DNA from: Psococerastis gibbosa
Taxonomy: Eukaryota > Arthropoda > Insecta > Psocodea > Psocidae
Length of the DNA: 64,000 nucleotides
Reading direction: 5' to 3'
Assembly: GCA_963971405.1 (NCBI GenBank)
Contig: OZ020485.1
Coordinates: forward strand, 38,933,469 to 38,997,468
Position numbers and translations under genes: made by a program. Below the pieces are notes generated by a model that worked only from the letters and a program-made list of their open reading frames with translations, ran no database searches and was not told where the DNA came from. Shown one piece after another: positions 28,310-63,240 of this stretch. Position 1 is the first letter of the stretch. The number at the start of each line of letters is the position of its first letter.

Positions 28310-28312
28310 TTA

Positions 28313-28707
28313 GGCGCCCATTCCACTGACCGGCTAGGGCTATTTACAAAAACGGTGACGTGGTAACAGACATTCAAGACTTAGGCGGGGTTTCCACCGA
28401 CCTCGCATTGCAGAATGCAAATGACATAGACCGAAATGTTTGTTTTCCTCTATGCCATAGTTAAAATTGATCAATGATCATACAGTAAAATCACAAACAA
28501 ACAAACTAAAATTAAAAAATGGCGTCATGGGATATGTTAAGTACAAACATTTTAATAGATTTCTATAAAAAGAAAAACAAACATTTCCGTCAATGTCATT
28601 TGCATTCTGCAATGCGAGGTCGGTGGAAACGCCACCTAAGTCTTGAATGTCTGCTACCACTTCACCGTTTTTGTAAATAGCCCTAGTCGGTCGGTGGAAT
28701 GGGCGCC
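28313..28707. mobile_element. PIF/Harbinger-type MITE (family H1), copy 3
   Basis: TTA is duplicated exactly at 28310-28312 and 28708-28710. Ends GGCGCCCATTCCACTGACCG and inverse. The arms GACGTGGTAACAGACATTCA and GCATTGCAGAATGCAAATGA are mirrored on the right. Non-coding, 395 bp. Confidence 0.88.
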
Positions 28708-28710
28708 TTA

Positions 28711-29141
28711 GTGATGGATTCGGTCCGTTTTGGTCCTTATTTTCGGTCAGAACGAACCGAGAACAGAAGTGAGATGGCTCGAACTGAAGACCGGACCGAA
28801 CGGTCAGAAGCGATGACCGGACAATATCCCTAGAGCGCACATGAGTGGATCGGACATTTTCGGACCTTATCTTGTTGAAAAATCGATGACTGCTTCAGCA
28901 CTAACAAAAAAAAAAAAATGAGTAGAAGTTAGGCATGGTAGATTTTTTGTCGTTTGCGTTTCTCAACATAAGGTCTATTGCTTCCAATGTGCGTGACCTA
29001 TATTTCTTTTTTTTCGGGTCAGAAAAAAATCAATCGGCTTGGCTGTTTGCTAGCATGAGGAATACACCGCGAACGTCTTTATCGGTTCCAGCGGCGGATT
29101 CGTTTAATTTGACAGCTACACGCCATGCCCTCATCGGGTTT
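28711..29141. other. Non-coding stretch with GGACC-rich segment
   Basis: About 28720-28870 contains several repeats of CGGACC/GGTCCG-like words on both strands (CGGTCCG, GGACCGAACGGTC, CGGACATTTTCGGACC). A short inverted-repeat element is possible, but I cannot place its ends. No gene seen. Confidence 0.4.
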
Positions 29142-41230: not shown

Positions 41231-43488
41231 GGGGTACAGGTGTTACCTGTGTGCACTTAAGCCTATTGGGCCTATTGTGCCCCCTACAACAAAGAATCTA
41301 CATATCTACATCAGTTCCTCGAGGCCTATTTCCCTCAGGAGAGCCAGGACTTTGAGGGGATTTAGAAGTGGTAGGTCTTTTACATGTAATTGCAAGTTTC
41401 CCAAGCATGCTGCTCTTCTACGTGCGATTGCATCGCAGTGAAGGAGGATATGCTCGGGGTCCTCCGCTCCTTCGTTACAGAATCTGCATGCTCTAGACTC
41501 TCTGACACCTATGTTGGTCAGATGTCCATTCAAGTTGCAATGCCCAGAGAGGAATCCTGTGATCACACGCAGATGTCTCCTGTTCATATTAATCCATACT
41601 TGGGCTCTTTTGCGCTGGTGGCTTCCCAGGAGCATTTTGGCTTGCCGAAGGCCCGGCAATGAGGTCCAGTATTCAGCCACTTTCAGGTTCTCCCTGCCTT
41701 TAACAAATCTGCGGGCGAGGGTTTCCCCAACACCGCAAAAAGGTTCGGGTCCCGTAAAAGGGGAGGTAGCTCCCCTTTTTGCAAGCTGGTCAGCAACCTC
41801 ATTGCCTTCAATGCCTGTGTGCCCAGGCACCCATATCAAGGTAACCTTATTCGCACCGGACAGTATGTCCAGTTTCAATCTACATTCCCACACTAGTTGT
41901 GAGGTGATTTTGTATGCTGTTATTGCTTTAAGGGCTGCTTGGCTATCTGACATGATAACAATTTCTCTCGATCTATATTCCCTGTCGAGATTCATTTGCA
42001 TACATCTGTCAAGGGCACATAACTCAGCCTGGTAGACTGTAGTTGTCTCCCCAAGAGACTCCAGATATTTCACCCCAGGACCAAAGACGCCAAGACCTGT
42101 TCTTGGTCTTGTACGTCCCAGCCTAGAGCCATCAGTGAACCACTTAATTGTGTGACTATTGAGAATTCCTGCTGATTCGCAGTATTCTTTCTTTGTCCCT
42201 AATATAGTTTCGAATTCCCTCTTAAAACAGTATTTTGGGTGAATTCTATCGCTTGGCATATCCAGGCAGTGGTCAGACGTAGTCAGAGAGGCTGAGTCTC
42301 TCTTAATTGCCCTTCCACTCCTTTTTACCCCGCTCCTAATAATCCGTAGCCTTGCCATTTCGGCTGACGTTTCCACTGCAATATGGAGGGGTGGGAAGTC
42401 CAGCACAATCTCCATTGCTGCAGTGGGACAGGATTTCATAGCCCCTGTAATGCATACACAGGCCAGTCTTTGTACTTTAGTGAGGGTGTCTCTTATACTT
42501 TGTACTGCAGTCCTGTGGGCCCAAGTCACACTTCCATACGTAATAATGGGCCTTACAATCAATAAATACAAATCTCGGAGGGCTCTGGGGGAAGTGCCCC
42601 ATTTCTTCCCCGCCATTCTCCTGCAAATCATAATAGATCGTTTGGCTTTAACCACTACGTCTTCTATATGCTTCTTGTAATTTAGTTTAGTATCCAGGGT
42701 TACTCCTAAATACTTGACTTGCCGTTCCCATGCTATTGGTTTGCCCCCAATGAGGACTTGCTTCAATGATAGCTTCCTTCTATTAGTGAAGGGAACTAGA
42801 CATGTTTTGGCCACATTTAGTTTGAGGCCTACTGTTTTGCACCATTCAGCAATAATATCAACCACGTGCTGCAGGAGCTCGCACAGTGTACTGTCATTTT
42901 TCCCTCTGACCATGGCCACGACGTCATCAGCATAGCCAATGCATTCTATGCCCCTGTCAGTAAGTATTTGTAGAAGCTTTTCTACTACAATCGTCCACAA
43001 TAGCGGTGACAGCACACCCCCCTGGGGGCATCCCCTAGTGGTTTTCATAGCCACCCCCTGTGCCACCGCTACCCTGCTAGTTAGGGCTGCCATTACCCAG
43101 TCTATAATAGTCGGGTCAACCTCCTTGTCGTTGAGGGCATTCTCAATAGACGAGTGGGATGTATTGTCAAAGCAGCCTTCAATATCTGTAAAAACACAGA
43201 AGACTGTGTCCTTACATTCGATAGCATCGGCAATAAAATTTGTCAATTGATATAGTGCCGTTTCCGTTGACCTCCCTGTGCGGTATGCGTGTTGGGAGGG
43301 GTGGAGTGGGCTTCGCAATAATGTGTTGTTTCTAATATAGTTGTCTATAATTTTCTCCAAAGTCTTTAACAGAAAGGAGGTTAGACAAATAGGTCTATAC
43401 GATTTGGCGGCCGTCGTGTCTTTTTTCCCAGATTTGGGGATAAAAACTACGACTGCATTCCTCCAAGGCTTGGGTATGTATCTGTAAA
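41198..43488 (-). mobile_element. 5'-truncated LOA-like LINE with poly(A) and 11-bp target duplication
   Basis: The element lies on the minus strand. Its 3' end is the T run at 41198-41225 (poly(A) on its own strand) and its 5' end is at about 43488. TCTGCTGTGTT occurs at 41189-41199 and 43489-43499 as the target duplication. Only the RT-RNase H half of ORF2 was copied; ORF1 and the endonuclease are missing, as is usual for incomplete reverse transcription. Confidence 0.88.
41306..43488 (-). CDS. LINE ORF2 fragment: reverse transcriptase + RNase H + zinc knuckle
   Basis: A continuous 766-codon frame opens at 43606, but its first ~39 codons are flanking DNA. Retroelement sequence starts near residue 40, directly inside the target duplication. 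Visible in order are RT motif A (FTDIEGCFDN, Asp141), GCPQGGVLSPLLW at 192-204 and YADD at 225-228. The RNase H catalytic set follows: Asp492 in TDGS, Glu528 in AEL, Asp554 in SDS, and Asp606 in EVAD with His596 in PGHTG. A C-terminal knuckle has Cys707, Cys710, His719 and Cys724. The CPQGGVLSPLLW wording and the RNase H after RT fit the LOA/I group better than Jockey or R1. The frame is intact, so the insertion is young, but it lacks endonuclease and ORF1 and cannot move by itself. The plus-strand frames across it are antisense shadows. Confidence 0.88.
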
Positions 43489-44005
43489 TCTGCTGTGTTA
43501 AAAAAGATACATTTTTCATGATTTTTCGGAAACTAATACATTTGTACCAACCCTGTTTATTTAACTTAAATCCAAAATACACATATGTTGCATAAAAATG
43601 TTCCACATACCTTCGTCCTCACGAGAAATTAATTATCAATCAATGAAAAACCAACATTAAAAGATATAAATTTTTTTTTAGTGTTTTTTTTTGGCTATAT
43701 TGAAAAAGAGAAAAAACACACAATGGGTGACTTTTGCGGTGGAATATCTCATGAACCCTAGTAAGTTTTGTCGCTATTTTTTAAATTTCGGTGTCTCTGG
43801 AGTTTCTTTTCAACATAATGACAACATTTAGACCCAAATTAGAACATTCATGTTTTTTTGTTTTTGGCCACCTAGCACCTCTCAAATTTCCCATAGTGAT
43901 ACGGCACGACATATAATAGAATTCAGTAGATTCTCGATTTCATCATTGAAAATAGTCAAAACAGTAACTAATTAGTTCAGGTTCAGGCCAGCATTTAAGT
44001 TTTCG

Positions 44006-47615: not shown

Positions 47616-47716
47616 AGTGTTCCTACCCGACCACGATAGGATGGCAATTGGAACGCTTATCAAAATCGAATAAACTTGGTGTTCCACTCTTTGCAAGTTT
47701 TCGAATGAACAAAGTA

Positions 47717-47921
47717 GTAGATATAAAAGGGGGTTCCTGGGACACTTTTAGGCCACTCTTGCTTTTTACCTCCGGGCATGGGGGTTCCTGGGACACTTTT
47801 AGGCCACTCTTGCTTTTTACCTCCGGGCATCATTATTGTTCTAATTGTACATTGTCAGCCTCCGGCTATCACTTATTTTATACTACTTCTATGCTAACCT
47901 TGTAGCCTATAAAACCACAAC
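47717..47921. repeat. Polinton left terminal inverted repeat (conserved part)
   Basis: Positions 47729-47921 match 58398-58590 in inverse at equal length (193 bp). GTAGATATAAAA (47717-47728) matches just outside. It contains two tandem 51-bp units starting GGGGGTTCCTGGGACACTTT. Outside it the left end has about 50 bp not found on the right. Confidence 0.85.
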
Positions 47922-48218
47922 ACATCATATCACAGGGGGTTTCTGGGACACTTTTAGGCCACTCTTGCTTTTTACCTCCGGGCATCATTTATGTTCTTAT
48001 TGTACGTTGTCAGCCTCCGGCTATCAATTATTTTATACTACTTATATGCTAACCTTGTAGCCTATAAAACCACAACACATCATATCACAGGGGGTTTCTG
48101 GGACACTTTTAGGCCACTCTTGCTTTCTACCTCCGGGCATCATTATTGTTCTTATTCTACGTTGTCAGCCTCCGGCTACCACTTATTTTATACTATACTT
48201 ATATGCTAACCTTGTAGC
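47729..48218. repeat. Tandem array in left Polinton end (51-bp and 155-bp units)
   Basis: The 51-bp unit is present at 47729 and 47780. It recurs at 47935 and 48090 as part of a 155-bp unit that also includes GTCAGCCTCCGGCTA and AACCTTGTAGCCTATAAAAC. The right end retains only the first two short units plus part of one long unit. Not a CRISPR array: units are contiguous and eukaryotic. Confidence 0.85.
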
Positions 48219-48314
48219 CTTTCTTCTTCTTCCCTTCTCTTCTTCTTCTTCTTCTTCTTCACACAGTGTAAGGGGGTCGCCCCCTCCTGTTATCGGACAT
48301 CATTCTCATTGTTT

Positions 48315-48528
48315 AAATAAATAAATAAATAAGGACTTTTTGTTCTATTACTAAGCCAACCTAGCGGAGTTAGGGCTATAAAGCCCTCTCTTACACTCAA
48401 CTAGGAAGACCCGGGACCGCCTGCTTTACATGCCCTCCGAAGCATGACCAGAAAATGTAGCAAGTGTAGGACTCGAACCAACAACCTTTCGGGTGAAAGT
48501 TGGAGTCCGTACCACCACTCTACATGTC
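48315..48528 (-). mobile_element. tRNA-derived SINE (family S1), full-length reference copy, inside the Polinton
   Basis: CATTCTCATTGTTT is duplicated exactly at 48301-48314 and 48529-48542. The 214-bp SINE reads on the minus strand: head GGACATGTAGAGTGGTGGT (A box), GGTTGGTTCGAGTCC-like B box, body, then a tail of TATTT repeats. It shows the family's true length and that S1 was still active after the Polinton arrived. Confidence 0.92.
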
Positions 48529-48542
48529 CATTCTCATTGTTT

Positions 48543-48849
48543 CTTCTTCTTCTTCACGTAGCCTACATACCGTATTTCGGGCGATTTCGCCTCCGCAATG
48601 ATTATTTATTTGATTTACATCATTTCATAGTCTATGATTAAGATAATCTTTCACCTTCACCATTATTATTGAAGCAATAGTATGTTTCTTTCAACCATTG
48701 GTTTTTAATAATCGTTATCTAATTATAAGCTTAAAACTAGTTATGTAATTAATAAAACAAAAACAGAAATATTTAAAGAAATTATTCATATATTTACATT
48801 TCATATTATTGGTGTAGTTAACATAATACTTCAGTACATAATGAAATCT
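48543..48849. other. Polinton arm, non-coding
   Basis: AT-rich spacer between the SINE and the 101-codon gene; no frame or repeat seen. It is the 3' flank of that minus-strand gene. Confidence 0.5.
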
Positions 48850-49155
48850 TCATTCTAGGATCTGTATGTTGACACTATTTTTTCCCCTATGGCTTGGAAC
48901 GATGAGATACATCTCAGCTCCTGGAGTGACTTTGCTTCCTTGAAAGGCTGACAGGTATAGTTGAGGTATAAAACACTCCACAACTTCTTTTTCCGGTCCT
49001 CGCAGTATCACTTTCACAGCTGGCCCATATTCTGTTTTGTCTATCTGCACTATTTTCAGTATTTGGTACTTAGCTCCAATCACCAGTTTTCGCATTGACA
49101 TGGTGGGCCCGGCTTCTTGGTTGATGGCATTAACTTTATCACATAGAGATGCCAT
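48850..49155 (-). CDS. Small Polinton protein, possible OB-fold/ssDNA-binding type
   Basis: 101 codons from ATG at 49155. The centre has the alternating pattern YQILKIVQIDKTEYGPAVKV, followed by a VxCFIPQLYL segment and a basic hydrophilic end. A short beta-barrel with a Lys/Thr/Tyr-Gly turn of this kind is seen in small single-strand-binding proteins carried by Polintons and related viruses. This is resemblance by pattern only, not proof. It lies in the left arm, divergent from the 231-codon gene across about 400 bp. The corresponding region is deleted from the right arm, so only one copy exists. Confidence 0.6.
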   Translation of the reverse strand: MASLCDKVNAINQEAGPTMSMRKLVIGAKYQILKIVQIDKTEYGPAVKVILRGPEKEVVECFIPQLYLSAFQGSKVTPGAEMYLIVPSHRGKNSVNIQILE

Positions 49156-49558
49156 GTTCTAAGATTACACAAATTCACTTGTAAAGTTGGCGTAGTATTA
49201 CTTGAATGAAGGTTTGGTCTCAACTAAGCCCCTCAACTGAGATGAGGGTGTATATCAGGTAAAATCATGTTGTGAGGGTCACAGCCGGAGGGGGATAGTT
49301 AAGTAATTTCTCCATTGCACCATATTTGTTAATGTAGGAATCGTTTCTTAATGTTGATCTCTCATACACATCGGTGTATTATAGGCAGCTTACAACCTTA
49401 AATCAAATGACTGATTTGTCCTTCTGTACCTAAGGCACTACATTTATGGTACCCCACCTAGTTCTAAATCGATTGTGTCTCATTATCTCTCTTTAATGAC
49501 CATAATTAACCGGGTTGTATATGTAACATGTGTGAAATAGCATCAGTTGCAATTGAAA
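49156..49558. promoter_or_regulatory. Divergent intergenic region, probable bidirectional promoter
   Basis: About 400 bp separate the start of the minus-strand 101-codon gene and the plus-strand 231-codon gene, so both must start transcription here. I see AT-rich words such as TGTATTATAGGC near 49374 but no certain core promoter. Confidence 0.3.
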
Positions 49559-50254
49559 ATGAAGGGTGTCTTGACCACATATTATCCACTTCGTGATGGA
49601 CTAAGCATTATTGTTGGTTTGCAATTCAAAGCATCAGCATTCGAAGTATACATCATAGTTGGTGATAAGGATCATGAAATTATATTCAATATGATCGAAT
49701 GGCAGTCATGGTGTGCAACATTACAATCCTTTCGTTTATATCTACATAAGAAAACAATGTGTGGAAATATGATATGGACTCCTAATTTCATCAAATCAAA
49801 CCTGACGATGATGTTAACGAATGATAATGAATTGGAAATGAAGTCCTCATCATCACATATTAAACTATCTAAAATAAATATTGAGAACATACAAGCGTTG
49901 AAAGCAATTCTTCATATTGTTTGCCATGAGTTGGAAAAGAAGAAGAGGTTGGCTAATTTCCATCTAAAAAATATTATGGAAGAGATATTTATAGAGTTGG
50001 AAACAGATGATGTTTCAATGGAAGCTCTTTTACAGTTTGCCCAATCTCCAGCTCCAATAGTAGCTACTATCGAGGATGTTCGCAGTAAACTATTGCGGAA
50101 GAAGCATCAAAATCAATCAAATCGTATGTATTTAGAAATTATAACCATCTATGAAAATGAGTTGTGCTATGAGATACTTAAGCGCTGGTTGGAGCGAGCT
50201 AAAGTCATTATCAATCAGACTGTTGAACACGATGGAACCGCTGGGGATAATTGA
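49559..50254 (+). CDS. Polinton arm protein, 231 codons, unknown (PC4-like pattern)
   Basis: The frame is open from a TTG at 49547; the first ATG, at 49559, is taken as the start. Residues ~10-60 have a beta-rich pattern (VYIIVGDKDHEIIFNMIEW) resembling the short PC4/p15 single-strand DNA-binding fold: strand, Gly turn, strand, then an acidic/Trp helix. That is a tentative likeness. The C-terminal half is helical and charged. It overlaps the next gene by up to 100 nt in another frame. Only its last ~60 codons survive in the right arm (about 58200-58397), which shows where the right arm was cut. Confidence 0.6.
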   Translation: MKGVLTTYYPLRDGLSIIVGLQFKASAFEVYIIVGDKDHEIIFNMIEWQSWCATLQSFRLYLHKKTMCGNMIWTPNFIKSNLTMMLTNDNELEMKSSSSHIKLSKINIENIQALKAILHIVCHELEKKKRLANFHLKNIMEEIFIELETDDVSMEALLQFAQSPAPIVATIEDVRSKLLRKKHQNQSNRMYLEIITIYENELCYEILKRWLERAKVIINQTVEHDGTAGDN

Positions 50255-51453
50255 GTTTCAAGGTTTCAAAGATAATGAAAATAATTTCATCATCAAAGAA
50301 TTGGCTATGGGCCCTGCATGCAAGAACCAGTATGAACATTGGTTTTTCCGTCCACCCTTTCCATTCACCAATCTTACAAATCAAGTAAAAAGCAACAACA
50401 CATGGTGCACAAATAATCTCCATAAGCTTCGTTGGGAAGAGGGGAACGTGGACTACATTCATTTAAAGAATATTTTACTAGAGTTTGCTAACCAATATGT
50501 TAGAATTGCTACTAAAGGAAAGGAGAAACAAGTTTGGCTTGCAGGAATACTAGAATGTGTTGTGTATGACTTGGACTCTGTGCTTCTGAGGAGTTTTGAG
50601 AAGTTACCTCATCTAGAAGCTAAGAAATGTATTCATACAGGAAACTGTGCAATGATCAATTTGAGGAAACTACAGAAATGGTTTCAAGATGTCAATTGTT
50701 TAATTGATGATGATGTTGATTAAAATAAAGTTATGTTTATAAAATTTCCGTTTTATTAATCCATGTAGGTTTCGGGAAACCAAGCCACTTCACATACAAT
50801 TTATCCTTAGACTTTTTCAACACTTTCTCCACCAAATATACATCTGTGTGCTTGGTTTTCTGCAACTCTTCCATATACCACGACCCTAATATAGGTTCAC
50901 CATCCATAGCCTCAAGGAGATAGGTAGTAGGTCGAGTAGGTTGTACAAGACGCACACGAAATACTTCTGTAGACCAGTTCGGTTGGTAACCCTTCTCAAA
51001 TAAGGCTTTCTGCTTGCTGATTCTGACGGGATCACCCTCTCGAAATTTCTGTTTGGTACTACCTTTCTCATCAACAGCTCTATACATAGATAATAATTTT
51101 GCTTCATGTTCTTCTCCCACATCGGCAGGACACATCTTAATGGTCCTATGCTTCGTAGTGTTGTATTGTTGCACTAAGCGAGGTACTAAATGTAACCACT
51201 TATAACCACCCTGCAAGCTGAATTCCTTCCACATTCGATTTTTCAGAGTGCGATTCCAACGTTCAATAATTGAAGCTTTCAGTGTAGAATAAGTAGCATA
51301 ATGATTAATGTTATATTGTTTTAGAATACATTTCATTTGTATATTGAAAAATTCCAGTCCCATATCTGTCTGAAGGTGGGCAGGAGCTTGAGGAGCTCTA
51401 TCGAGAATTTTTACAAAAGCTTCAGTTACATCCTTCATAGATTTAGTTTTAAC
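50027..51453. repeat. Left copy of the 1,427-bp inverted duplication
   Basis: Pairs base for base in inverse with 56971-58397. The two copies have the same length and encode identical proteins over the whole shared part. The inner border follows GTTTTAAC at 51453, where sequence changes from integrase to polB. The outer border is at CTTTTACAG at 50027. Confidence 0.93.
50151..50723 (+). CDS. Conserved Polinton arm protein, 190 codons (left copy)
   Basis: The open frame starts at 50151. The Met at codon 28 (50232) is the likelier start, because conserved-looking sequence begins just after it (GIIEFQGFKDNENNFIIKEL) and overlap with the preceding gene drops to about 23 nt. Later features are WFFRPPFPF, W-C-T-N, KGKEKQVWLAG, DLDS and a closing C-x-H-x3-C-A followed by a WF helix. 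The order of an early acidic residue in a beta strand and later DLD and His/Cys sites suggests a nuclease-like RNase H/exonuclease fold. I offer that as a guess. AATAAA follows the stop directly (50724-50729). Confidence 0.65.
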   Translation: MKMSCAMRYLSAGWSELKSLSIRLLNTMEPLGIIEFQGFKDNENNFIIKELAMGPACKNQYEHWFFRPPFPFTNLTNQVKSNNTWCTNNLHKLRWEEGNVDYIHLKNILLEFANQYVRIATKGKEKQVWLAGILECVVYDLDSVLLRSFEKLPHLEAKKCIHTGNCAMINLRKLQKWFQDVNCLIDDDVD

Positions 51454-51489
51454 GTGGGGACGTTTAAAGATGAGAATGCTCATTCTCAC
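50737..51489 (-). pseudogene. Truncated integrase (left copy), first catalytic Asp missing
   Basis: From residue 15 onward it equals residues 68 to 304 of the intact integrase at 56773-57687, keeping the second Asp (TDMGLEF), the Glu (IIERWNRT) and the chromodomain. It lacks the first ~67 residues, including the WQADLVEM Asp that starts the DDE triad. Its opening ~14 codons are antisense polB sequence gained at the junction at 51453/51454. It is expected to be inactive. It could give a protein able to bind DNA or chromatin if translated, but there is no evidence for that. Confidence 0.9.
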
Positions 51490-51804
51490 ATTTTACAATG
51501 TGTTGCTTTACGCCCCAAATTGTATTCCTTGTTTGAGGAGGGAAAAGAAAAGAAAGTGGGCAAAGGTATAGTTCGCTCAACACTCAAACATCATATTTCC
51601 CATCAAGACTATTACAATACCCTATTTAAGTCCTACAGTGTAAAAGACTCGTGTAAACCAATGTACCGTATTCAAAGTATTGATCATAAACTTTTTACAA
51701 TTAAACAACAAAAACTCACTCTCAGCCCTTATGATGATAAACGGTATGTGTGTCGTAATGGAATTGATAGTTTAGCTCACGGTCATTATCGCATTTCACT
51801 CTAA
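51454..51804 (+). pseudogene. C-terminal remnant of protein-primed DNA polymerase B
   Basis: About 117 codons in frame to a stop at 51804. They read GTFKDENAHSHILQC, then VALRPKLYSL, a Lys/Gly-rich KKVGKGIVRSTLK, HISHQDYYNTLF, then SPYDDKRYV and GIDSLAHGHY. This is the closing thumb-region pattern of Polinton PolB (Phe-Lys-Asp-Glu; Leu-Arg-x-Lys-x-Tyr-Ser; Asp-Asp-Lys-Arg; Leu-Ala-x-Gly-His-Tyr). The exonuclease and palm with catalytic Asp residues are absent; the sequence changes to inverted integrase at 51453. The open frame to the left (from 51337) is antisense integrase. A full Polinton PolB is around a thousand residues, so roughly nine-tenths is lost. Confidence 0.85.
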
Positions 51805-52085
51805 TTGTATCGCAACCCTGGAGCTAATTACCAGCAGAACAAACACAAATAATCTAACTAAGTGATTATAATGACATTGATTTCTTTTAAAATACCTCAC
51901 CCTAATTGTAAATGATTGTAAGGCTCTTAGAACTAATTACCAGCAAACATTAATAACCTAACTAACCTTGTGTTGGAGGTTTATCTTAAGTGATTATAAC
52001 GACATTGATTTCTATTAAAATACATGTATTATAAAATTGTTATATCATTAAATGGTTTACATTCATTTACCGGATATCAAGGGTT
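51805..52085. other. Convergent spacer with an imperfect direct repeat
   Basis: Lies between polB (plus) and the MCP gene (minus), where both must terminate. Two copies of CTAATTACCAGCA(A/G)A...AAGTGATTATAA(T/C)GACATTGATTTCT occur at about 51820-51895 and 51930-52020. The second copy carries about 20 extra bases. Confidence 0.7.
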
Positions 52086-53300
52086 CTACTGTAGTTGATG
52101 TACAATACCTGTTAAAGGTACATATTCATATAAGCAGTCACTAATGAGTAGACAGTAGGCACTCATTTTATCAGGGAAATTAGTTTGACAGTGAATTTCC
52201 AAACGTATATCAACACCACTAGTTTTCATGAGCTCATTCTGTCGTGAGCAATCGATAACCCAAATGGGGTATGATTTTAGAAATTCACTACGGGAAACGT
52301 TTGGAGTTGCTTCATCCTGCATGTAGTAGTGTTTCCGGAAATTGAGAAAATTTTCATATAATACAGCAACAGTATTTTTGCTGAAGTTCGCCTGTAGCGG
52401 ATGGTATGGATAGCATTCTGAGCCGAGGAATAGTTGTATTTGTCGTATAGCGCATTGATCAAAAACACTAGCATCTTCCTTAACATCATCTGTGCGTGCT
52501 GCTTGGAAGCCAATAATAGCAAACCGTGGTTTTTCACTTGAAGAAATCATTCGCACAGGCCAATTAATTGATGATGTTGATGAGGGAATGTTGGGATATT
52601 CATACAGTTGCCATGTTCGGAAGCCAATCGGCAACCGAATATTTTCCCTTAGTACACTCAACAATTCAAGGCGCTGACTATCACTCACACTTACGAAAGG
52701 TATTTCCCACATCACAGTAGTCAGTTTCAATGTCAAGTCTTTAGTGTTTGAAATATCCCGCATGGCATTCGTATTGCTGCGTGATCGTACTAAGACAAGC
52801 TCTTGTTTAACGTTGAGTAGAACTCGTCGGAAATCCTCGCAAAATCCAAACAACATTTTCAATGGCAAACAGAAATTAAAGTTCCTCTCAGTTTTATTTG
52901 TATCTGTATAAAATGAGTTGTTTGTAAGACGTTGTGCATCTTGAGCGGTGAATGATACTAACCCTTTAAGCTGAGTGGTAATACCAGGATTTCGCACATG
53001 ATCAATAGTTATTCCATTGAGTTCATAGCGTATTTCAGAGAATAAGTGTGCCATAGCATTAGCACTAAGCCCATCATCATCCTCATAAGCAATTGTTTTC
53101 ACACCTTTTTCTAACACACCTTCAATATACAGTCGGCTTTCACATGGTAGAGTAAGTATATCTTGTTGATGGATTGGTATGCGAATTTCATCATTATTAT
53201 TTAGACTGCTTGATGAATAGGGTGCAATCTTATGGTATTCATAACGTGTTAAACTTTCATCCACGAGAATGGACTCCTTCACGTTTAGCATTGATGTCAT
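52086..53300 (-). CDS. MCP: Major capsid protein (double jelly-roll)
   Basis: 404 codons from ATG at 53300; an ATG three codons later is also possible. It has the features of the double jelly-roll capsid proteins of Polintons: IHQQDILTLPCESRLYIEG early, then a helix-turn LFSEIRYELNG, then VRNPGITTQLKG. A second beta-rich half includes RLPIGFRTWQLYEYPN, SSEKPRFAIIGFQ, ECYPYHPL, an NFRKHYY segment and a closing PIWVIDCSRQNELM...DIRLEIH. Its predicted role is to form the hexameric capsomers. The frame is complete, with no stops or shifts. It sits in a minus-strand block with the minor capsid, protease and PLA2-like genes, the morphogenesis cluster. Its start overlaps the 57-codon gene by 44 nt. 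Confidence 0.88.
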   Translation of the reverse strand: MTSMLNVKESILVDESLTRYEYHKIAPYSSSSLNNNDEIRIPIHQQDILTLPCESRLYIEGVLEKGVKTIAYEDDDGLSANAMAHLFSEIRYELNGITIDHVRNPGITTQLKGLVSFTAQDAQRLTNNSFYTDTNKTERNFNFCLPLKMLFGFCEDFRRVLLNVKQELVLVRSRSNTNAMRDISNTKDLTLKLTTVMWEIPFVSVSDSQRLELLSVLRENIRLPIGFRTWQLYEYPNIPSSTSSINWPVRMISSSEKPRFAIIGFQAARTDDVKEDASVFDQCAIRQIQLFLGSECYPYHPLQANFSKNTVAVLYENFLNFRKHYYMQDEATPNVSRSEFLKSYPIWVIDCSRQNELMKTSGVDIRLEIHCQTNFPDKMSAYCLLISDCLYEYVPLTGIVHQLQ

Positions 53301-53430
53301 CGTGGATTTTAAAACCTATTGATTGTAAATATCGTCTGTTCTCATTAGTGAGCTTAACACAGCGTACTTGTGTGGAAGCTCGAGTTGGAATGTTGTATGG
53401 TGTATACCGCTGTGAAATATATACTCTCAT
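53257..53430 (-). CDS. Small Polinton protein, 57 codons, between the capsid genes
   Basis: Short frame from ATG at 53430 to TGA ending at 53257. Its ATG overlaps the stop of the minor capsid gene as ATGA (53427-53430), and its end overlaps the MCP start by 44 nt. The product is basic, opens VYISQRYTPYNIPTRAS and contains VKLTNENRRYLQSIGFKI. Small basic proteins with a Leu-Thr-x-x-Asn...Tyr/Phe-Leu-x-Ser-(Ile/Leu)-Gly element occur next to Polinton capsid genes, from my general memory of the group. Function unknown. Tight packing on both sides supports it as real. Confidence 0.6.
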   Translation of the reverse strand: MRVYISQRYTPYNIPTRASTQVRCVKLTNENRRYLQSIGFKIHDDINAKREGVHSRG

Positions 53431-54122
53431 GATTGTTTACGTAAATGAAGACGTAAAGTAATAGTTTCCCCTCGGAAATCGACCGTGTTGTTGTCTTGAT
53501 CGACAATGTCTAATGTTAGACTTGTAAGTATATTTGTATTTATAGCATGGTAGACGATTGTATGTGGTGCTTCAACAATCCGATAACCAGGTGGTACATT
53601 AGGATAAAATTCATGAACAGCATGTGATGGTCTACCATTCAAATATGATCCTCTTGTAATATTACAATTAATTCGAATTGCATTGACTTTAGATATTTTA
53701 ATGCTATCTGTTGATTTATATATTCCACTTGTGAGAAATGTCACCCCATCATAACCAAAGCCTAGCAGGTATCCTAGTTCTTCATTTACTTCAATCGTGA
53801 AGCCATCAAGTATTATCCAAACTACGGAATGCATGGTGTTCCGATTCGCGCTTATCGATACGATTTCAGTACCCCACTCTTCATTTATATATTTAGCTAT
53901 GTCTGATAATTCGTAAGATCCTATTGGTAATTCAATTATTGTAGCCTCCAGAGGTTTTGAATCGTTTATAATTTTAATCACACCCTTTGAGAGATTAGGT
54001 ATTGAATTATATGTTTCAAGGTCAAGCAAGCCGATTTCCCATACACCTTCAAGTATAATTGGAGGGAAGTAATTGCTACCTAGGAATGACTTGTTACCAC
54101 TTAGTGTCAATGTTAGCGACAT
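53427..54122 (-). CDS. Minor capsid protein (single jelly-roll, penton type)
   Basis: The open frame extends back to a TTG at 54137; the first ATG, at 54122 (MSLTLTLSGNKSFLGSNYFP), is taken as the start, giving 231 residues. Polinton minor-capsid features are SNYFPPIIL, GLLDLETYNSIPN, ELPIGSYELSDI, a LGYLLGF turn, RINCNITRGSYLNG, HEFYPNVPPGYRI and the closing DFRGETITLRLHL. It is predicted to form the pentons at capsid vertices. Complete frame; 28 bp separate it from the protease gene upstream on the same strand, and ATGA links it to the small gene downstream. Confidence 0.86.
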   Translation of the reverse strand: MSLTLTLSGNKSFLGSNYFPPIILEGVWEIGLLDLETYNSIPNLSKGVIKIINDSKPLEATIIELPIGSYELSDIAKYINEEWGTEIVSISANRNTMHSVVWIILDGFTIEVNEELGYLLGFGYDGVTFLTSGIYKSTDSIKISKVNAIRINCNITRGSYLNGRPSHAVHEFYPNVPPGYRIVEAPHTIVYHAINTNILTSLTLDIVDQDNNTVDFRGETITLRLHLRKQS

Positions 54123-54150
54123 AATATAATAAATCAAACATATGCATAGC

Positions 54151-54531
54151 TTATATAACTTTTAATATCATGGAAAATGGATCTTTCATGTAGAGAAATT
54201 TTAGGCATAACTGCCCACAATTTGATGTTGAATAGGTTTGATATGATTGATAGTTGTAGTATATTGCACAGTTGTGAAAATATTGTTTCAATTCTAAAGG
54301 TGGTTTCAAGTCTCCAAAGCTATCGAAGTATATAACTTGGTTTCTAATCTTGCGGTAAGCAACCCAATGTGTGCCGGGTCCCATAGCATCATCTAAATTA
54401 ATTATTCCAGCTTCATAATGTTGCCATGGTATGTGAGGTAGTGCATTTCGCATGAACACACCACGAAAATGAGGAACATTAGCGGCGAATTTTATAAGTT
54501 CCACATTAGTCAGTGGACGGTTCCGAGGCAT
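54151..54531 (-). CDS. PRO: Adenain-like cysteine protease (capsid maturation)
   Basis: 126 codons from ATG at 54531. It carries the adenovirus-protease layout: His55 in GTHWVAY, Asp70 in VIYFDSFG, a Gln near residue 98 and Cys105 in SNCGQLCLKFL. Expected role: cleavage of capsid or core precursors during assembly. The C-terminus is short, ending about 20 residues after the Cys, which is at the low end for the family, but all catalytic positions are present. It lies between the minor capsid and PLA2-like genes, only 5 bp after the latter. Confidence 0.88.
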   Translation of the reverse strand: MPRNRPLTNVELIKFAANVPHFRGVFMRNALPHIPWQHYEAGIINLDDAMGPGTHWVAYRKIRNQVIYFDSFGDLKPPLELKQYFHNCAIYYNYQSYQTYSTSNCGQLCLKFLYMKDPFSMILKVI

Positions 54532-54536
54532 GCAAC

Positions 54537-55256
54537 TTAGTTTTTTGAATAAGGATGTAAGTAGAGTCCACTCCCATTCTTGTATGGTGCTAAATATAAG
54601 CCTTTTCCAATGGCTATAGATTCCATAGTTTGATTATGACGTTTCATTTCTTCATACTTTTTCTGTGCACTATGGGCTTTATTAGCAGCCGATGCAATTC
54701 CTGCAGCACCACCAGAGAGAGCACCTAGGGCAGAAAGCCCCGCAAATATCGGGATAAGTGGTAATATACCACCTGTCTTGGCAATAGGTATGATTCGAGG
54801 AGGTTTCCTTTTATCTCCCTTTAAATTTTTCACAGATTTATATGCGATCTTGATTGCATCCGCCACAGTGGGTGGTTTTGTAAGCTTTATCGCTTTCTTA
54901 GCTGAAGTCAATAGTGATCTGAAAGACACTTTCCGCTTCAACCCAAATCCCAGCTTTCGTTTAACTTTCATTGCAGCTGCTACACCTAAAGCAACGATTT
55001 TTTCCCCTACAGACGAATCTTTTGCTTTTACACGTTGCCACGCTTGATCTGCCAAATTTTTATCAGCCACGTGTCGACTAGTTATATCTGATGATTGTGA
55101 ATAGGCTATATCATGTTCACGACAAGCTTGATCAAGTTTGTTTCTCCCTCGATCTCCACGAAGTAATCGTTTTTCTAACTTAGTGCCTGGTCCGCAAAAT
55201 TGATAGCCGGGGATATGTGCTTCAATTGGTAACTTATTAATTATGTTGTTCAACAT
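54537..55256 (-). CDS. Phospholipase A2-like, glycine/alanine-rich virion protein
   Basis: The frame opens at a TTG (55268), but the first ATG, at 55256, is taken as the start (239 residues). The N-terminal domain has the calcium-loop YQFCGPGT and the active-site helix DQACREHDIAY with the His-Asp pair, the compact PLA2 form known from parvovirus VP1 and found in Polintons. Basic linkers follow, then a Gly/Ala-rich hydrophobic segment (GILPLIPIFAGLSALGALSG). The end carries two GLYLxPY motifs (GLYLAPY and GLYLHPY). Probable role: membrane breach or disruption during entry. It diverges from the ATPase gene across a very short gap. Confidence 0.85.
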   Translation of the reverse strand: MLNNIINKLPIEAHIPGYQFCGPGTKLEKRLLRGDRGRNKLDQACREHDIAYSQSSDITSRHVADKNLADQAWQRVKAKDSSVGEKIVALGVAAAMKVKRKLGFGLKRKVSFRSLLTSAKKAIKLTKPPTVADAIKIAYKSVKNLKGDKRKPPRIIPIAKTGGILPLIPIFAGLSALGALSGGAAGIASAANKAHSAQKKYEEMKRHNQTMESIAIGKGLYLAPYKNGSGLYLHPYSKN

Positions 55257-55331
55257 AGGTATTCTCAAATGCGAATGAGTAAAATGTTTGTATATACAGT
55301 GGTATTTATAGCTTTTTTAATCACTCATATA
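55257..55331. promoter_or_regulatory. Divergent promoter between PLA2-like and ATPase genes
   Basis: If the minus gene starts at 55256 and the ATPase at 55332, 75 bp lie between them. The interval includes TTTGTATATACAGTGG and TATTTATAG, AT-rich words that could serve as TATA-like elements for the rightward gene. Upstream ATGs at 55269, 55275 and 55284 fall inside this stretch. Confidence 0.35.
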
Positions 55332-56027
55332 ATGAAGCTTGTACCACAAAGACATAAGTTCAGTGTGATTCTAAGTCAAGAAGATGAAAATGTACGGAGT
55401 AATAGAAAGAATGGGCCTTTACTTCCTGCATCGATTCGTGGTACAATCTGCGGTCCATCAGGTTGTGGTAAAACAAGCCTACTATGCAGCATGATATATC
55501 ATCCGTTTGGTCTACGATTTGAAAATGTGTACTTATTCTGCAAGACATTGTTTCAACATAAATACCAGCAGCTTGAGAAAAATATCAATTCTATTCGTGG
55601 GATGACTTTCACAGGGTCAGGCGATTCGGTTACACCACTCTCTGACATCAAACCTAACTCTGTGCTAATATTCGATGATGTTTCATGTGAATCTCAAGGG
55701 GAAATTCGAAATGTCTACTCTATGGGTCGTCATAAAGGGGTTGATTGCTTCTATCTCACTCAGACCTATACCTCCATTCCGAAACATTTGCTGCGAGATA
55801 ATTTGAATTTTATCGTATTATTCAAACAGGATTTGCTTAATATAAAGAATGTGTATAGAGACCATGTTGCGGGAGATATGAATTTAGCGACATTCATGAA
55901 ACTCTGTGCGGAAGCATGGAAAGAGTCACATACATTCCTAGTTATTGCAAAAGATTTTGGATTAAATGATGGACGATATCGGCAGGGATTCGATCACTAT
56001 TTCAAAGATATAAATAACTCTGCTTAA
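55332..56027 (+). CDS. ATPase: DNA-packaging ATPase (A32/FtsK-HerA type)
   Basis: In-frame ATGs exist from 55269, giving 252 codons. I prefer 55332 (MKLVPQRHKF), because the upstream codons are hydrophobic, unlike the family N-terminus, and coincide with the likely promoter. Counted from the first ATG, Walker A is GPSGCGKTS (62-70), Walker B LIFDDV (133-138) and a sensor Gln is in YLTQTY (165). The fold matches the packaging ATPases of Polintons, adenovirus-like and NCLDV elements. Expected role: pumping the linear genome into the capsid. Complete frame. It starts the plus-strand block that continues with the 233-codon protein and integrase. Confidence 0.9.
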   Translation: MKLVPQRHKFSVILSQEDENVRSNRKNGPLLPASIRGTICGPSGCGKTSLLCSMIYHPFGLRFENVYLFCKTLFQHKYQQLEKNINSIRGMTFTGSGDSVTPLSDIKPNSVLIFDDVSCESQGEIRNVYSMGRHKGVDCFYLTQTYTSIPKHLLRDNLNFIVLFKQDLLNIKNVYRDHVAGDMNLATFMKLCAEAWKESHTFLVIAKDFGLNDGRYRQGFDHYFKDINNSA

Positions 56028-56074
56028 CACGTAACTCATCATTATTCATTCGACTATAACACGGTGTAGTAGAT

Positions 56075-56776
56075 ATGGATACCAAAGTTATCAAGAATAT
56101 TATCAACATACGCAAAGCTCTGCAACAAAAGTACCTTAATCTTAAACGTGATCTACACAATGAGGCTTCTCAGCAAGAGCGGAAGTTAAAACCTGTCTTG
56201 AAACCTCTACAAGAATTAATTGAGCTGAACAAACAAACAGCGATAGCAAGAGCAATTCATAAACCTGGAGTTAGCAAATATTTAGACTTATTAATGCCTA
56301 ATCAATATAATAGGAAAACCATTGATACATACTATGGAGTAACACGAAGTAATGAAGGTGTATTTATGCTGGGTTCATACCCTGTACATTTTAATGCTGA
56401 TGATGATTCGATCACAATCGAAGATAAAACATGGCAAGGCACATTGGGTTTGTATCAATTATTAACATTGAACAAACCTGAAAACTATACTTTGGAAGAT
56501 TTACAAGCCTATAAAGATATATTGGAAAGAACTGGAGCTCATTTAACCACTAGTGGTCGTCTTAGGAGCAGTCAACGTTATAAATATAAAAATATTGTTA
56601 AACAGCTTTTTGGAATAAAATCTGGTGGTGAATATCAATATTGGAATGATCCAAATGAATTAGTTGAACGATTACGCTTACTTAATGCATCACATGCCGC
56701 AGGACATACAAGCCATCAAAACGAAATCATTAATATTATCAACGAATTGCGAGAAGCAAATATTATTATTCAATGA
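56075..56776 (+). CDS. Conserved Polinton protein of unknown function
   Basis: 233 codons from ATG at 56075. The N-terminus is a charged helix or coiled coil (KALQQKYLNLKRDLHNEA). The centre has a conserved Polinton pattern: TYYGV...GVFMLGSYPVHF, ADDDSITIEDKTWQGTLGLY, QLLTLNKP and a YKDILERTGAH helix. A basic segment with the Lys-Tyr-Lys-Asn-Ile-Val-Lys motif then follows. I recognise this as a protein that commonly accompanies Polinton core genes, but I know no assigned activity. Its stop overlaps the integrase start as ATGA (56773-56776). Confidence 0.75.
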   Translation: MDTKVIKNIINIRKALQQKYLNLKRDLHNEASQQERKLKPVLKPLQELIELNKQTAIARAIHKPGVSKYLDLLMPNQYNRKTIDTYYGVTRSNEGVFMLGSYPVHFNADDDSITIEDKTWQGTLGLYQLLTLNKPENYTLEDLQAYKDILERTGAHLTTSGRLRSSQRYKYKNIVKQLFGIKSGGEYQYWNDPNELVERLRLLNASHAAGHTSHQNEIINIINELREANIIIQ

Positions 56777-57687
56777 AACAAGCTTTGGTTGATGAAATTC
56801 ATCGACCTGCTCGACGGAATTATCCCCGACGCCATGTGACTGTTAAAGGAATGCATGATTTATGGCAAGCAGATCTGGTGGAAATGATTCCATATTCAAA
56901 GATTAATAAAGGATATAAATATATTCTAACAGTGATAAATGCATTCACAAAGTTCGGCTATGCAGAAGCAGTTAAAACTAAATCTATGAAGGATGTAACT
57001 GAAGCTTTTGTAAAAATTCTCGATAGAGCTCCTCAAGCTCCTGCCCACCTTCAGACAGATATGGGACTGGAATTTTTCAATATACAAATGAAATGTATTC
57101 TAAAACAATATAACATTAATCATTATGCTACTTATTCTACACTGAAAGCTTCAATTATTGAACGTTGGAATCGCACTCTGAAAAATCGAATGTGGAAGGA
57201 ATTCAGCTTGCAGGGTGGTTATAAGTGGTTACATTTAGTACCTCGCTTAGTGCAACAATACAACACTACGAAGCATAGGACCATTAAGATGTGTCCTGCC
57301 GATGTGGGAGAAGAACATGAAGCAAAATTATTATCTATGTATAGAGCTGTTGATGAGAAAGGTAGTACCAAACAGAAATTTCGAGAGGGTGATCCCGTCA
57401 GAATCAGCAAGCAGAAAGCCTTATTTGAGAAGGGTTACCAACCGAACTGGTCTACAGAAGTATTTCGTGTGCGTCTTGTACAACCTACTCGACCTACTAC
57501 CTATCTCCTTGAGGCTATGGATGGTGAACCTATATTAGGGTCGTGGTATATGGAAGAGTTGCAGAAAACCAAGCACACAGATGTATATTTGGTGGAGAAA
57601 GTGTTGAAAAAGTCTAAGGATAAATTGTATGTGAAGTGGCTTGGTTTCCCGAAACCTACATGGATTAATAAAACGGAAATTTTATAA
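56773..57687 (+). CDS. INT: Integrase: DDE core plus C-terminal chromodomain (intact copy)
   Basis: 304 codons from ATG at 56773. A catalytic triad is visible: Asp34 in LWQADLVEM, Asp96 in LQTDMGLEF and Glu130 in IIERWNRT, as in retroviral-type integrases. An SH3-like segment follows (FREGDPVRIS...YQPNWSTEVFRV). The last ~36 residues form a chromodomain-like end (VEKVLKKSKDKLYVKWLGF...TW), which could steer integration to marked chromatin. The N-terminal zinc-binding domain is absent or very short. Residues 68-304 are duplicated in inverse at 50737-51453. Only 13 bp separate it from the convergent 190-codon gene. Confidence 0.93.
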   Translation: MKQALVDEIHRPARRNYPRRHVTVKGMHDLWQADLVEMIPYSKINKGYKYILTVINAFTKFGYAEAVKTKSMKDVTEAFVKILDRAPQAPAHLQTDMGLEFFNIQMKCILKQYNINHYATYSTLKASIIERWNRTLKNRMWKEFSLQGGYKWLHLVPRLVQQYNTTKHRTIKMCPADVGEEHEAKLLSMYRAVDEKGSTKQKFREGDPVRISKQKALFEKGYQPNWSTEVFRVRLVQPTRPTTYLLEAMDGEPILGSWYMEELQKTKHTDVYLVEKVLKKSKDKLYVKWLGFPKPTWINKTEIL

Positions 57688-57700
57688 ACATAACTTTATT

Positions 57701-58273
57701 TTAATCAACATCATCATCAATTAAACAATTGACATCTTGAAACCATTTCTGTAGTTTCCTCAAATTGATCATTGCACAGTTTCCTGTATGAATACATTTC
57801 TTAGCTTCTAGATGAGGTAACTTCTCAAAACTCCTCAGAAGCACAGAGTCCAAGTCATACACAACACATTCTAGTATTCCTGCAAGCCAAACTTGTTTCT
57901 CCTTTCCTTTAGTAGCAATTCTAACATATTGGTTAGCAAACTCTAGTAAAATATTCTTTAAATGAATGTAGTCCACGTTCCCCTCTTCCCAACGAAGCTT
58001 ATGGAGATTATTTGTGCACCATGTGTTGTTGCTTTTTACTTGATTTGTAAGATTGGTGAATGGAAAGGGTGGACGGAAAAACCAATGTTCATACTGGTTC
58101 TTGCATGCAGGGCCCATAGCCAATTCTTTGATGATGAAATTATTTTCATTATCTTTGAAACCTTGAAACTCAATTATCCCCAGCGGTTCCATCGTGTTCA
58201 ACAGTCTGATTGATAATGACTTTAGCTCGCTCCAACCAGCGCTTAAGTATCTCATAGCACAACTCATTTTCAT
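57701..58273 (-). CDS. Conserved Polinton arm protein, 190 codons (right copy)
   Basis: Identical in protein to the left copy at 50151-50723. The same choice of start applies: codon 28, at 58192, is the likelier one. It converges on the integrase; AATAAA for this strand lies directly after its stop, inside the 13-bp gap and the integrase end. Two identical copies mean that either could supply the function. Confidence 0.65.
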   Translation of the reverse strand: MKMSCAMRYLSAGWSELKSLSIRLLNTMEPLGIIEFQGFKDNENNFIIKELAMGPACKNQYEHWFFRPPFPFTNLTNQVKSNNTWCTNNLHKLRWEEGNVDYIHLKNILLEFANQYVRIATKGKEKQVWLAGILECVVYDLDSVLLRSFEKLPHLEAKKCIHTGNCAMINLRKLQKWFQDVNCLIDDDVD

Positions 58274-58397
58274 AGATGGTTATAATTTCTAAATACATAC
58301 GATTTGATTGATTTTGATGCTTCTTCCGCAATAGTTTACTGCGAACATCCTCGATAGTAGCTACTATTGGAGCTGGAGATTGGGCAAACTGTAAAAG
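58201..58397 (-). pseudogene. Residual 3' end of the 231-codon arm gene
   Basis: Corresponds to the last ~60 codons of 49559-50254 (from LLQFAQSPAPIV onward). The 5' part is replaced by terminal-repeat sequence at 58398, so it cannot be expressed as in the left arm. Confidence 0.8.
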
Positions 58398-58602
58398 GTT
58401 GTGGTTTTATAGGCTACAAGGTTAGCATAGAAGTAGTATAAAATAAGTGATAGCCGGAGGCTGACAATGTACAATTAGAACAATAATGATGCCCGGAGGT
58501 AAAAAGCAAGAGTGGCCTAAAAGTGTCCCAGGAACCCCCATGCCCGGAGGTAAAAAGCAAGAGTGGCCTAAAAGTGTCCCAGGAACCCCCTTTTATATCT
58601 AC
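58398..58602. repeat. Polinton right terminal inverted repeat
   Basis: Inverse of 47717-47921, including two 51-bp units (ending GGAACCCCC at 58539 and 58590) and GTAGATATAAAA in inverse at 58591-58602. It joins 58397 without the ~2.1 kb that separates the same two points on the left. Confidence 0.85.
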
Positions 58603-58655
58603 TCAAAGTGTTCCAAGTGCCATCCTATAGTGGTCGGGTAGTACAATGCTTTATT

Positions 58656-60822: not shown

Positions 60823-60840
60823 GTCTAGTACGTCTTCTAA

Positions 60841-61229
60841 GGCGCGGTTTCCACCGACCGGCTAGGGCTAAATACAAATACGGTGACGTGGTAACAGACA
60901 TTCAAGACTTAGGCGGTGTTTCCACCGACCTCACATTGCAGAATGCAAGTGGCATTGACGGAAATGTTTGTTTTACTCTATGCCATAGTTAAAATTCATC
61001 AATGATCATAGAGTAAAATCACAAACAAACTAACGAAAATTAAAAAATGGTGTCATGGGATATGTTAATTACAAACATTTTAATAGATTTCTATAAAAAG
61101 AAAAACTAACATTTCCGTCAATGCCACTTGCATTCTGCAGGTCGGTGGAATCCCCGCCTAAGTCTTGAATGTCTGTTACCACGTCACCGTATTTGTATTT
61201 AGCCCTAGCCGGTCGGTGGAAACCGCGCC
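60841..61229. mobile_element. PIF/Harbinger-type MITE (family H1), copy 4
   Basis: TAA is duplicated at 60838-60840 and 61230-61232. Ends GGCGCGGTTTCCACCGACCG and inverse; arms as in the other H1 copies. It lies 10 bp beyond the hAT duplication, in the same array unit. Confidence 0.9.
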
Positions 61230-62275
61230 TAAGATAGATTTGACCCCTTCAACAATAACGCCCATTTCGATTCCAATCAAATTCATCATTAATGAACCGG
61301 GTCGTTCGCAAATAAAAAGTATCGTTATAATATTAATGCAAAACTTAACACGATTAATATTTCACTTGACGTGTTTTATATTTAAGCAACTGAAACTATG
61401 CGTAAAGGTTACCTTTTGCATACTGTATTGGTCTCTTACATCTTCTAAGATAGATTTGATCCCTTCAACAATAACGCCCATTTCGATTCCAATCAAATTC
61501 ATCATTAATGAACCAGGTCGTTCGCAAATAAAAAGTACCGTTATAATATTAATGCATAACTTAACACAATTAATATTTCTCTTGACGTGTTTTGTTTTCA
61601 GCAACTAAAAATTTGCGTAGCGGTTACCTTTTGCATACTGTATTAGTCTATTACGTCTTCTATTATACAATAGATTTGATCCCTTCAACAACAACGCCCA
61701 TTTTTATTTCATTCAAATCACTGCTTTTATCATGAATGAACAGGGACATTCCCAAACAATAAGTAATAATATTAATGCATAACTTAACACAATTGATATT
61801 TCTCTTGAACCGTTTTGTTTTCAGCAAATACAAATATGCGTAAATATTACCTTTTACATACTGTCTTCGTCTATTACGTCTTTGTAATATAGATTTGATC
61901 CCTTCAACAATAACGCTCATTTCTATTCCATTCAAATCACAGTCTTTATCATTAATGGACAGGGTCATTCGCAAGCAACGGGTAGTAACATTAATGCATA
62001 ACTTAACACAATTGATATTTCTCTTGAACCGTTTTGTTTTCAGCAACTAGAAATATGCGTAAATATTACCTTTTACATACCGTCTTGGTCTATTACGTCT
62101 TTGTATTATAGATTTGATCCCTTCAACAATAACGCTCATTTCTATTCCATTCAAATCACAGTCTTTATCGTTAATGGACAGGGTCATTCGCAAGCAACGG
62201 GTAGTAACATTAATGCATAACTTAACACAATTCATATTATTTTCTCTTGAAGTGTTTTGTTTTCAGCAACAGCTA

Positions 62276-63240
<965 letters not shown>

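What the first reader, a model, noticed from the sequence alone, without database searches (positions are those of the whole stretch)
50027..58397. Polinton whose left end has been replaced by an inverted copy of its right end, destroying polB
Seen: 50027-51453 and 56971-58397 are inverse copies of equal length (1,427 bp) with identical proteins. The right copy runs on into the missing integrase N-terminus, so it is the source. The left copy stops exactly where polB sequence begins (51453/51454), and only the last ~117 polB codons remain. Known: protein-primed linear genomes such as adenoviruses produce defective molecules carrying an inverted copy of one end. Inference: this is a defective, snap-back-type Polinton genome fixed in a chromosome. 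It would mean Polintons make the same replication errors as their viral relatives, with integrase copying the defective product into the host. All virion genes remain open, so it might still be packaged with polymerase from another copy.
Basis: partly seen in the sequence, partly recalled or inferred. Interest (0 to 1): 0.92.

Follow-up and report, generated by a model that had tools for sequence, protein, structure and literature searches.

The report
Polinton with one end copied over
This is an integrated virus-like transposon (a Polinton) in which the end that carried the DNA polymerase gene appears to have been overwritten by a mirror-image copy of the opposite, integrase-bearing end, leaving an element that lacks its own polymerase; the same kind of end-copying is known in other mobile elements and viruses.

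Summary
The inverted copies are real: 50027-51453 and 56971-58397, 1427 bp, no mismatch. They are not the element's ends. A second perfect pair, 47716-47921 / 58398-58603, with CAAAGT repeated directly outside, makes the Polinton 47716-58603 (10,888 bp). The right arm is one 1633-bp block; the left arm is the same block plus 2105 bp holding most of a tandem array, a SINE and ORFs. Both edges of that stretch cut features continuous on the left, so the right arm probably has a deletion. polB homology starts at 51454; 116 codons remain, the DTDS region of relatives is gone. So the polB end was replaced, to the terminus, by a copy of the integrase end. The SINE hints weakly at the chromosome. The host genome could not be searched (14 of 14 calls unanswered), so other copies of the junction were not sought there. 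New member of a known kind.

The parts
47710..47715 (.). left target-site duplication CAAAGT
47716..47921 (+). left terminal inverted repeat, part shared with the right end (206 bp, 100%)
47780..48220 (+). 155-bp tandem array, 2.8 copies; the right arm stops 13 bp before the end of unit 1
47922..50026 (+). 2105 bp of left arm absent from the right arm (read as deleted there)
48301..48542 (+). tRNA-type SINE (48315-48528; type judged by eye) with 14-bp target-site duplication (48301-48314, 48529-48542)
48850..49155 (-). 101-aa ORF, function unknown
49559..50254 (+). 231-aa ORF crossing 50027 without a stop, function unknown
50027..51453 (+). inverted copy of 56971-58397 (main shared arm, left)
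50232..50723 (+). 163-aa gene, left copy; homologues P0001-P0003
50737..51453 (-). integrase C-terminal fragment, codons 67-304; lacks the first Asp of the presumed triad
51454..51804 (+). polB remnant, last 116 codons and stop; DTDS region of relatives absent
52086..53300 (-). major capsid protein, double jelly roll (PF21738, E 1.9e-92)
53427..54137 (-). probable minor capsid (penton) protein; assignment recalled, no Pfam hit
54151..54531 (-). probable adenovirus-type protease (PF00770, E 0.03, below cut-off)
54537..55268 (-). phospholipase A2-like domain protein (PF08398)
55269..56027 (+). A32-type packaging ATPase (PF04665)
56075..56776 (+). 233-aa ORF, unknown, overlaps the integrase start by 4 bp
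56773..57687 (+). 304-aa integrase ORF (PF00665); D34, D96, E130 at recalled motif positions
56971..58397 (+). main shared arm, right
57701..58192 (-). 163-aa gene, right copy
58170..58397 (-). remnant of the 231-aa ORF (last 76 codons incl. stop)
58398..58603 (+). right terminal inverted repeat
58604..58609 (.). right target-site duplication CAAAGT

Best explanation
Shown by the sequence: a 10.9-kb Polinton with a 6-bp target-site duplication, in which the polB side carries, from the very terminus to integrase codon 67, an inverted copy of the integrase side, and only 116 codons of polB remain. Inferred: the original polB-side end was lost and replaced by that copy; the donor (right) end, later or in the same episode, lost 2105 bp. 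Inferred mechanism: the polB side was broken or left incomplete, the terminal repeat still standing at the left end paired with the matching repeat of the right end and was extended inward by copying (SINE, 101-aa, 231-aa and 163-aa ORFs, part of integrase), and the new end was joined to what was left of polB. I think it slightly more likely that this took place in a resident chromosomal copy (break repair from one terminal repeat onto the other, as proposed for Galileo) than in an extrachromosomal replicating genome. The product keeps an integrase and open capsid-block genes but no polymerase, so it should be non-autonomous.
For: End replacement: two perfect inverted pairs, 1427 and 206 bp, that abut on the right; CAAAGT exactly outside both ends; polB homology starts at base 51454 with both relatives found, whose upstream DTDS region has no counterpart here, and tblastn at E <= 1 finds no other match to them in the window; only the right arm continues into a whole integrase ORF. 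Deletion on the right: the 2105-bp edges cut a 155-bp tandem unit 13 bp before its end and an ORF that runs through in the left arm (156 codons left of the edge open in 2 of 20,000 dinucleotide shuffles); no duplication flanks the stretch. Chromosomal site: the SINE has 2 private differences in 209 compared columns (alignment, count), against none between the arms in 1427 + 206 bp, which hints that the SINE was there before the copying; the published model for Galileo gives the same kind of product, and that paper says inverted-repeat expansion was reported for Polintons (PMC3573991, passages).
Against: The SINE clock is weak: the two differences may belong to its subfamily (five other copies, three of them covering one of the two columns), and gene conversion between the arms could have wiped out differences. 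The anatomy is equally expected if a replicating genome was rearranged and then integrated. No intact relative of this element was obtained, so the ancestral integrase end (integrase, 163-aa, 231-aa, 101-aa ORF, repeat) is inferred from this copy alone. The original left repeat that would prime the copying is no longer visible, and microhomology at 51453/51454 cannot be judged because the lost polB sequence is unknown.
Confidence: 0.47

Rival explanations
1. Snap-back or inter-molecular end replacement in a replicating Polinton genome, followed by integration: during protein-primed synthesis a nascent strand at polB switched to the integrase end, or two genomes in opposite orientation joined, and integrase inserted the product with a new 6-bp target-site duplication.
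For: Target-site duplication and termini are intact; the copy reaches the exact terminus; if two genomes joined, one may already have carried the 2105-bp deletion, so the unequal arms would need no later event; in mpox virus one end replaced by an inverted copy of the other, with gene loss there, is reported and explained by nonhomologous recombination between two genomes in reverse orientation (PMC10230479, passages).
Against: The one-molecule snap-back needs a separate 2105-bp deletion; the SINE must have come later or travelled in the viral genome, and its 2 private differences sit badly with arms that show none. Adenovirus precedents are recalled only: searches (20 of 85, 15 of 123 and 12 of 20 papers listed) showed none by title or abstract start.
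Confidence: 0.35
2. Core-inverted version: the left arm, with all its genes, is the original integrase end; the shorter right arm is the copy, made with a 2105-bp skip; the 5517-bp core was later flipped by recombination between the 1427-bp arms, or its orientation was set wrongly by the assembler.
For: 1427-bp perfect inverted arms would allow flipping and can defeat short-read assembly (inference); the fuller arm is the left one; duplication and deletion would then be one copying event.
Against: Needs an inversion for which there is no direct sign; the window as given joins polB to the left arm.
Confidence: 0.1
3. Assembly artefact: the left arm was filled in with sequence of the right arm or of another copy.
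For: The shared parts of the arms are identical and no reads were available to me.
Against: The arms differ by 2105 bp with clean edges, the left arm has its own SINE with a 14-bp duplication, the target-site duplication fits the two outer ends exactly, and the window has no N.
Confidence: 0.08

Closest known systems
Polinton / Maverick self-synthesizing transposons (vertebrate set, PMC8097293, passages read)
   Same: Terminal inverted repeats, 6-bp target-site duplication, integrase, packaging ATPase, double-jelly-roll capsid protein, polB (here a remnant).
   Different: Intact vertebrate elements there are 12,723-24,620 bp with terminal repeats of 46-1,447 bp and end motifs (AG)3 or (AGT)2; this one is 10,888 bp, begins AGTAGA, its arms (1,633 bp on the right, 3,738 bp on the left) carry genes, and polB is lost.
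Galileo elements with expanded terminal repeats (PMC3573991, passages read)
   Same: One end copied onto the other so that internal sequence becomes inverted repeat (TIR1-F1-F1-TIR2).
   Different: Galileo is classified with the P element (abstract start); here the overwritten part is a viral-type polymerase gene.
Mpox virus genomes with terminal-repeat expansion (PMC10230479, passages read)
   Same: Inverted copy of one end replaces genes of the other end.
   Different: Free virus that does not integrate (recalled).
Adenovirus defective genomes with an inverted copy of one end (recalled, not seen in any call)
   Same: Linear protein-primed genome with a duplicated end.
   Different: No integrase and no chromosomal target-site duplication (recalled).

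Membership tests
Polinton/Maverick | terminal inverted repeats | tested here: met
Polinton/Maverick | end motif (AG)3 or (AGT)2, as used for vertebrate elements in PMC8097293 | tested here: not met
   the element begins AGTAGATATA, i.e. AGT and then AGA; the motif is one of vertebrate elements and not taken as defining for other hosts
Polinton/Maverick | 6-bp target-site duplication | tested here: met
   CAAAGT on both sides
Polinton/Maverick | retroviral-type integrase | tested here: met
   PF00665, E 4.9e-10, above cut-off; D34, D96, E130
[quoted passage not shown]
   C-terminal 116 codons match two proteins that carry a DTDS motif; neither these nor the remnant has a Pfam polymerase match; the polB name rests on recalled motifs. 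The gene is destroyed here.
Polinton/Maverick | double-jelly-roll capsid protein and packaging ATPase | tested here: met
   PF21738 and PF04665 above cut-off
Snap-back (replication-born) defective genome | rearranged form arose before integration, so that it can be found at more than one site | not testable with these tools
   The genome search on the own genome unanswered in 14 of 14 tries
Snap-back (replication-born) defective genome | two ends identical from the terminus to the junction | tested here: not met
   2105 bp missing on the right; a later deletion could explain it
TIR expansion by end copying (Galileo type) | internal sequence next to one terminal repeat appears in inverted orientation next to the other | tested here: met

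The most novel reading that the evidence does not exclude
Polintons form defective genomes by copying one end onto the other during extrachromosomal, protein-primed replication, and integrase fixes these polymerase-less genomes in host chromosomes, where they could act as satellites of intact copies.
Probability: 0.3. Interest if true: 0.68.

Novelty: new member of a known kind. Interest (0 to 1): 0.42.

Why it matters
It is a clean example, with no difference between the shared parts of the arms, of how a self-synthesizing transposon can lose its polymerase while keeping integrase, capsid-block genes and both termini. If other insertions share the junction it would be evidence for extrachromosomal Polinton replication and for satellite-like forms; if not, it is another case of terminal-repeat expansion in a chromosome.

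Tried and rejected
Rejected: 50027 and 58397 as element ends (the 206-bp pair and CAAAGT lie outside). Rejected: the 2105 bp as an insertion into the left arm (no flanking duplication; it cuts a tandem unit and an ORF). Rejected: the 235-aa and 190-aa ORFs as one frame-shifted gene; homologues P0001-P0003 start at about the Met of the 163-aa frame, so I read two overlapping genes.

Led nowhere: viral contigs by integrase, capsid protein, 163-aa alignment, capsid alignment and polB remnant and by exact junction and terminus letters gave no related locus; that collection is not of animal genomes, so this says little. Genome contigs by the capsid alignment gave one distant locus (L001, 30%). Junction-spanning ORF in the protein database: 2 proteins at E <= 0.01 among 9 candidates, both covering 74% of the query, which is the polB part, so no shared junction seen; the search draws on short exact words and length limits. 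Fold of the 101-aa ORF from a single sequence: mean pLDDT 56.7, not used. No match for it in solved structures at E <= 1, nor for P0124 at E <= 10. PHROGs: one match at E 0.086 for the 163-aa protein among six proteins scanned, taken as chance. Nine paper searches listed 20 of 89, 20 of 85, 20 of 56, 15 of 123, 0 of 0, 15 of 16, 12 of 20, 15 of 26 and 10 of 36 papers; none of those listed describes an end-replaced Polinton by its title or abstract start. The sources that PMC3573991 cites beside its remark on Polinton repeat expansion (three references, among them a 2007 review by Jurka and others) were not seen, nor was a 2006 Polinton paper that I looked up by a recalled DOI (not held). Papers: passages only of PMC8097293, PMC3573991, PMC12220804 and PMC10230479; the rest as search listings.

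Full report
What is there. The repeat finder gives an inverted pair 50027-51453 / 56971-58397, 1427 bp without a mismatch, as reported, and a second perfect pair 47716-47921 / 58398-58603 of 206 bp. On the right the two abut, so the right arm is one block, 56971-58603, 1633 bp. On the left they are 2105 bp apart (47922-50026). Immediately outside the outer pair stands CAAAGT on both sides in direct orientation (47710-47715 and 58604-58609); the first 18 bp of the terminus occur twice in the window, at the two ends, also when 3 mismatches are allowed. Random pairs of window positions show such a 6-mer match at a rate of 0.00052 (200,000 draws).

Genes. Of ten ORFs scanned, five had no Pfam match at E <= 0.1; above cut-off were the double-jelly-roll capsid protein (PF21738), a phospholipase A2-like protein (PF08398), an A32-type ATPase (PF04665) and the integrase (PF00665); the protease matched below cut-off. 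The 233-aa ORF had no match. The minor capsid assignment is recalled. All nine frames checked end in their only stop; the minor-capsid and PLA2 frames as listed begin at a TTG, so their real starts may lie further in. The integrase ORF has D34, D96 and E130 at recalled motif positions. The capsid protein has 1083 relatives at E <= 0.001 among 3411 candidates, 120 listed; six of the 120 rows name an organism, five species in all: a bee, an ant, a beetle and two aphids. The host of the window was not identified.

polB. The frame 51454-51804 matches P0124 (57%) and P0125 (44%), and both matches begin at base 51454; in the alignment their upstream parts, with a DTDS motif, have no counterpart here. 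Neither they nor the remnant reaches a Pfam polymerase model, so the name polB rests on recalled motifs. tblastn at E <= 1 finds no other match to them in the window.

Which arm is the copy. The right arm runs into a whole integrase ORF and the left arm stops at integrase codon 67 against polB, so at the inner junction the right is the donor. At the outer side the left is the fuller: its extra 2105 bp hold the rest of a 155-bp tandem array, of which the right arm keeps one unit less its last 13 bp, a SINE, a 101-aa ORF and most of a 231-aa ORF, of which the right arm keeps the last 76 codons counting the stop. The 156 codons of that ORF left of 50027 stay open in 2 of 20,000 dinucleotide shuffles. 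There is no microhomology or duplication at the edges of the 2105 bp (read). So I read a deletion in the right arm. Microhomology at 51453/51454 cannot be judged, as the lost polB sequence is unknown. An alternative with the core flipped, in which the left arm is the original, is kept as a rival, since 1427-bp inverted arms can recombine or mislead an assembler.

The SINE. A tRNA-type SINE (48315-48528; type judged by eye) with a 14-bp perfect duplication sits in the left arm; relatives lie elsewhere in the window. Against five of these it has 2 private differences in 209 columns compared, one column covered by all five others and one by three, while the arms have no difference. If the two differences arose after insertion, the SINE is older than the copying, and the copying happened in, or from, a chromosomal copy. 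With so few SINE copies, and with gene conversion between arms possible, this is a hint only. With assumed mutation rates of 1e-9 to 5e-9 per site and generation, no difference in 1633 bp gives a 95% upper bound of about 0.9 to 0.2 million generations, again unless conversion kept the arms alike.

Mechanism. That one end is an inverted copy of the other follows from the anatomy; where the copying took place does not. A replicating linear genome could do it by strand switching or by joining of two genomes in opposite orientation; the latter is the model given for mpox genomes with expanded terminal repeats (PMC10230479, passages), and it could bring in the unequal arms at once if one of the two genomes already had the deletion. 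A chromosomal element could do it by break repair from one terminal repeat onto the other; PMC3573991 describes this for Galileo with the product TIR1-F1-F1-TIR2 and adds that such expansion was reported for Polintons (passages; its sources not seen). The target-site duplication is kept in both. The SINE, and the Galileo precedent, make me lean slightly to the chromosome.

Comparison. Intact vertebrate Mavericks have 46-1,447-bp terminal repeats and are 12,723-24,620 bp long, with end motifs (AG)3 or (AGT)2 (PMC8097293, passages). The present element is shorter, begins AGTAGA, and its arms carry genes. My nine paper searches (numbers and list sizes under Tried and rejected) showed no report of an end-replaced Polinton by title or abstract start, but the lists were capped, the library lacks most subscription papers, and the remark in PMC3573991 means that the kind of event is known.

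So other copies in the host, intact relatives and assembly support were not tested. The junction-spanning ORF found no protein that shares the junction (2 matches among 9 candidates, both the polB part only).

Noticed in passing
window 48315-48528; also about 37895, 22069, 25418, 6393, 8766(-): A tRNA-type SINE family with at least six copies in the window; the copy in the Polinton arm has a perfect 14-bp target duplication.
   Followed up: partly
window 41306-43606 (-): Long ORF with reverse transcriptase and RNase H domains, probably a non-LTR retrotransposon (domains; type recalled).
   Followed up: no
window 20297-20685, 24107-24424, 28310-28711, 60836-61238: Four related copies of a short repeat with inverted halves, MITE-like.
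   Followed up: no
window 61229-62319: Tandem array with a period of about 215-223 bp, 2.6 kb to the right of the element.
   Followed up: no
L001 261-1505: A 4.1-kb contig filed under a Balneolales bacterium MAG encodes a 30% relative of the Polinton capsid protein, perhaps a stray eukaryotic virus contig.
   Followed up: no
window 49559-50254 and 50232-50723: Two small ORFs at the integrase end overlap by 23 bp; the second has three homologues in the protein database and no Pfam match.
   Followed up: partly
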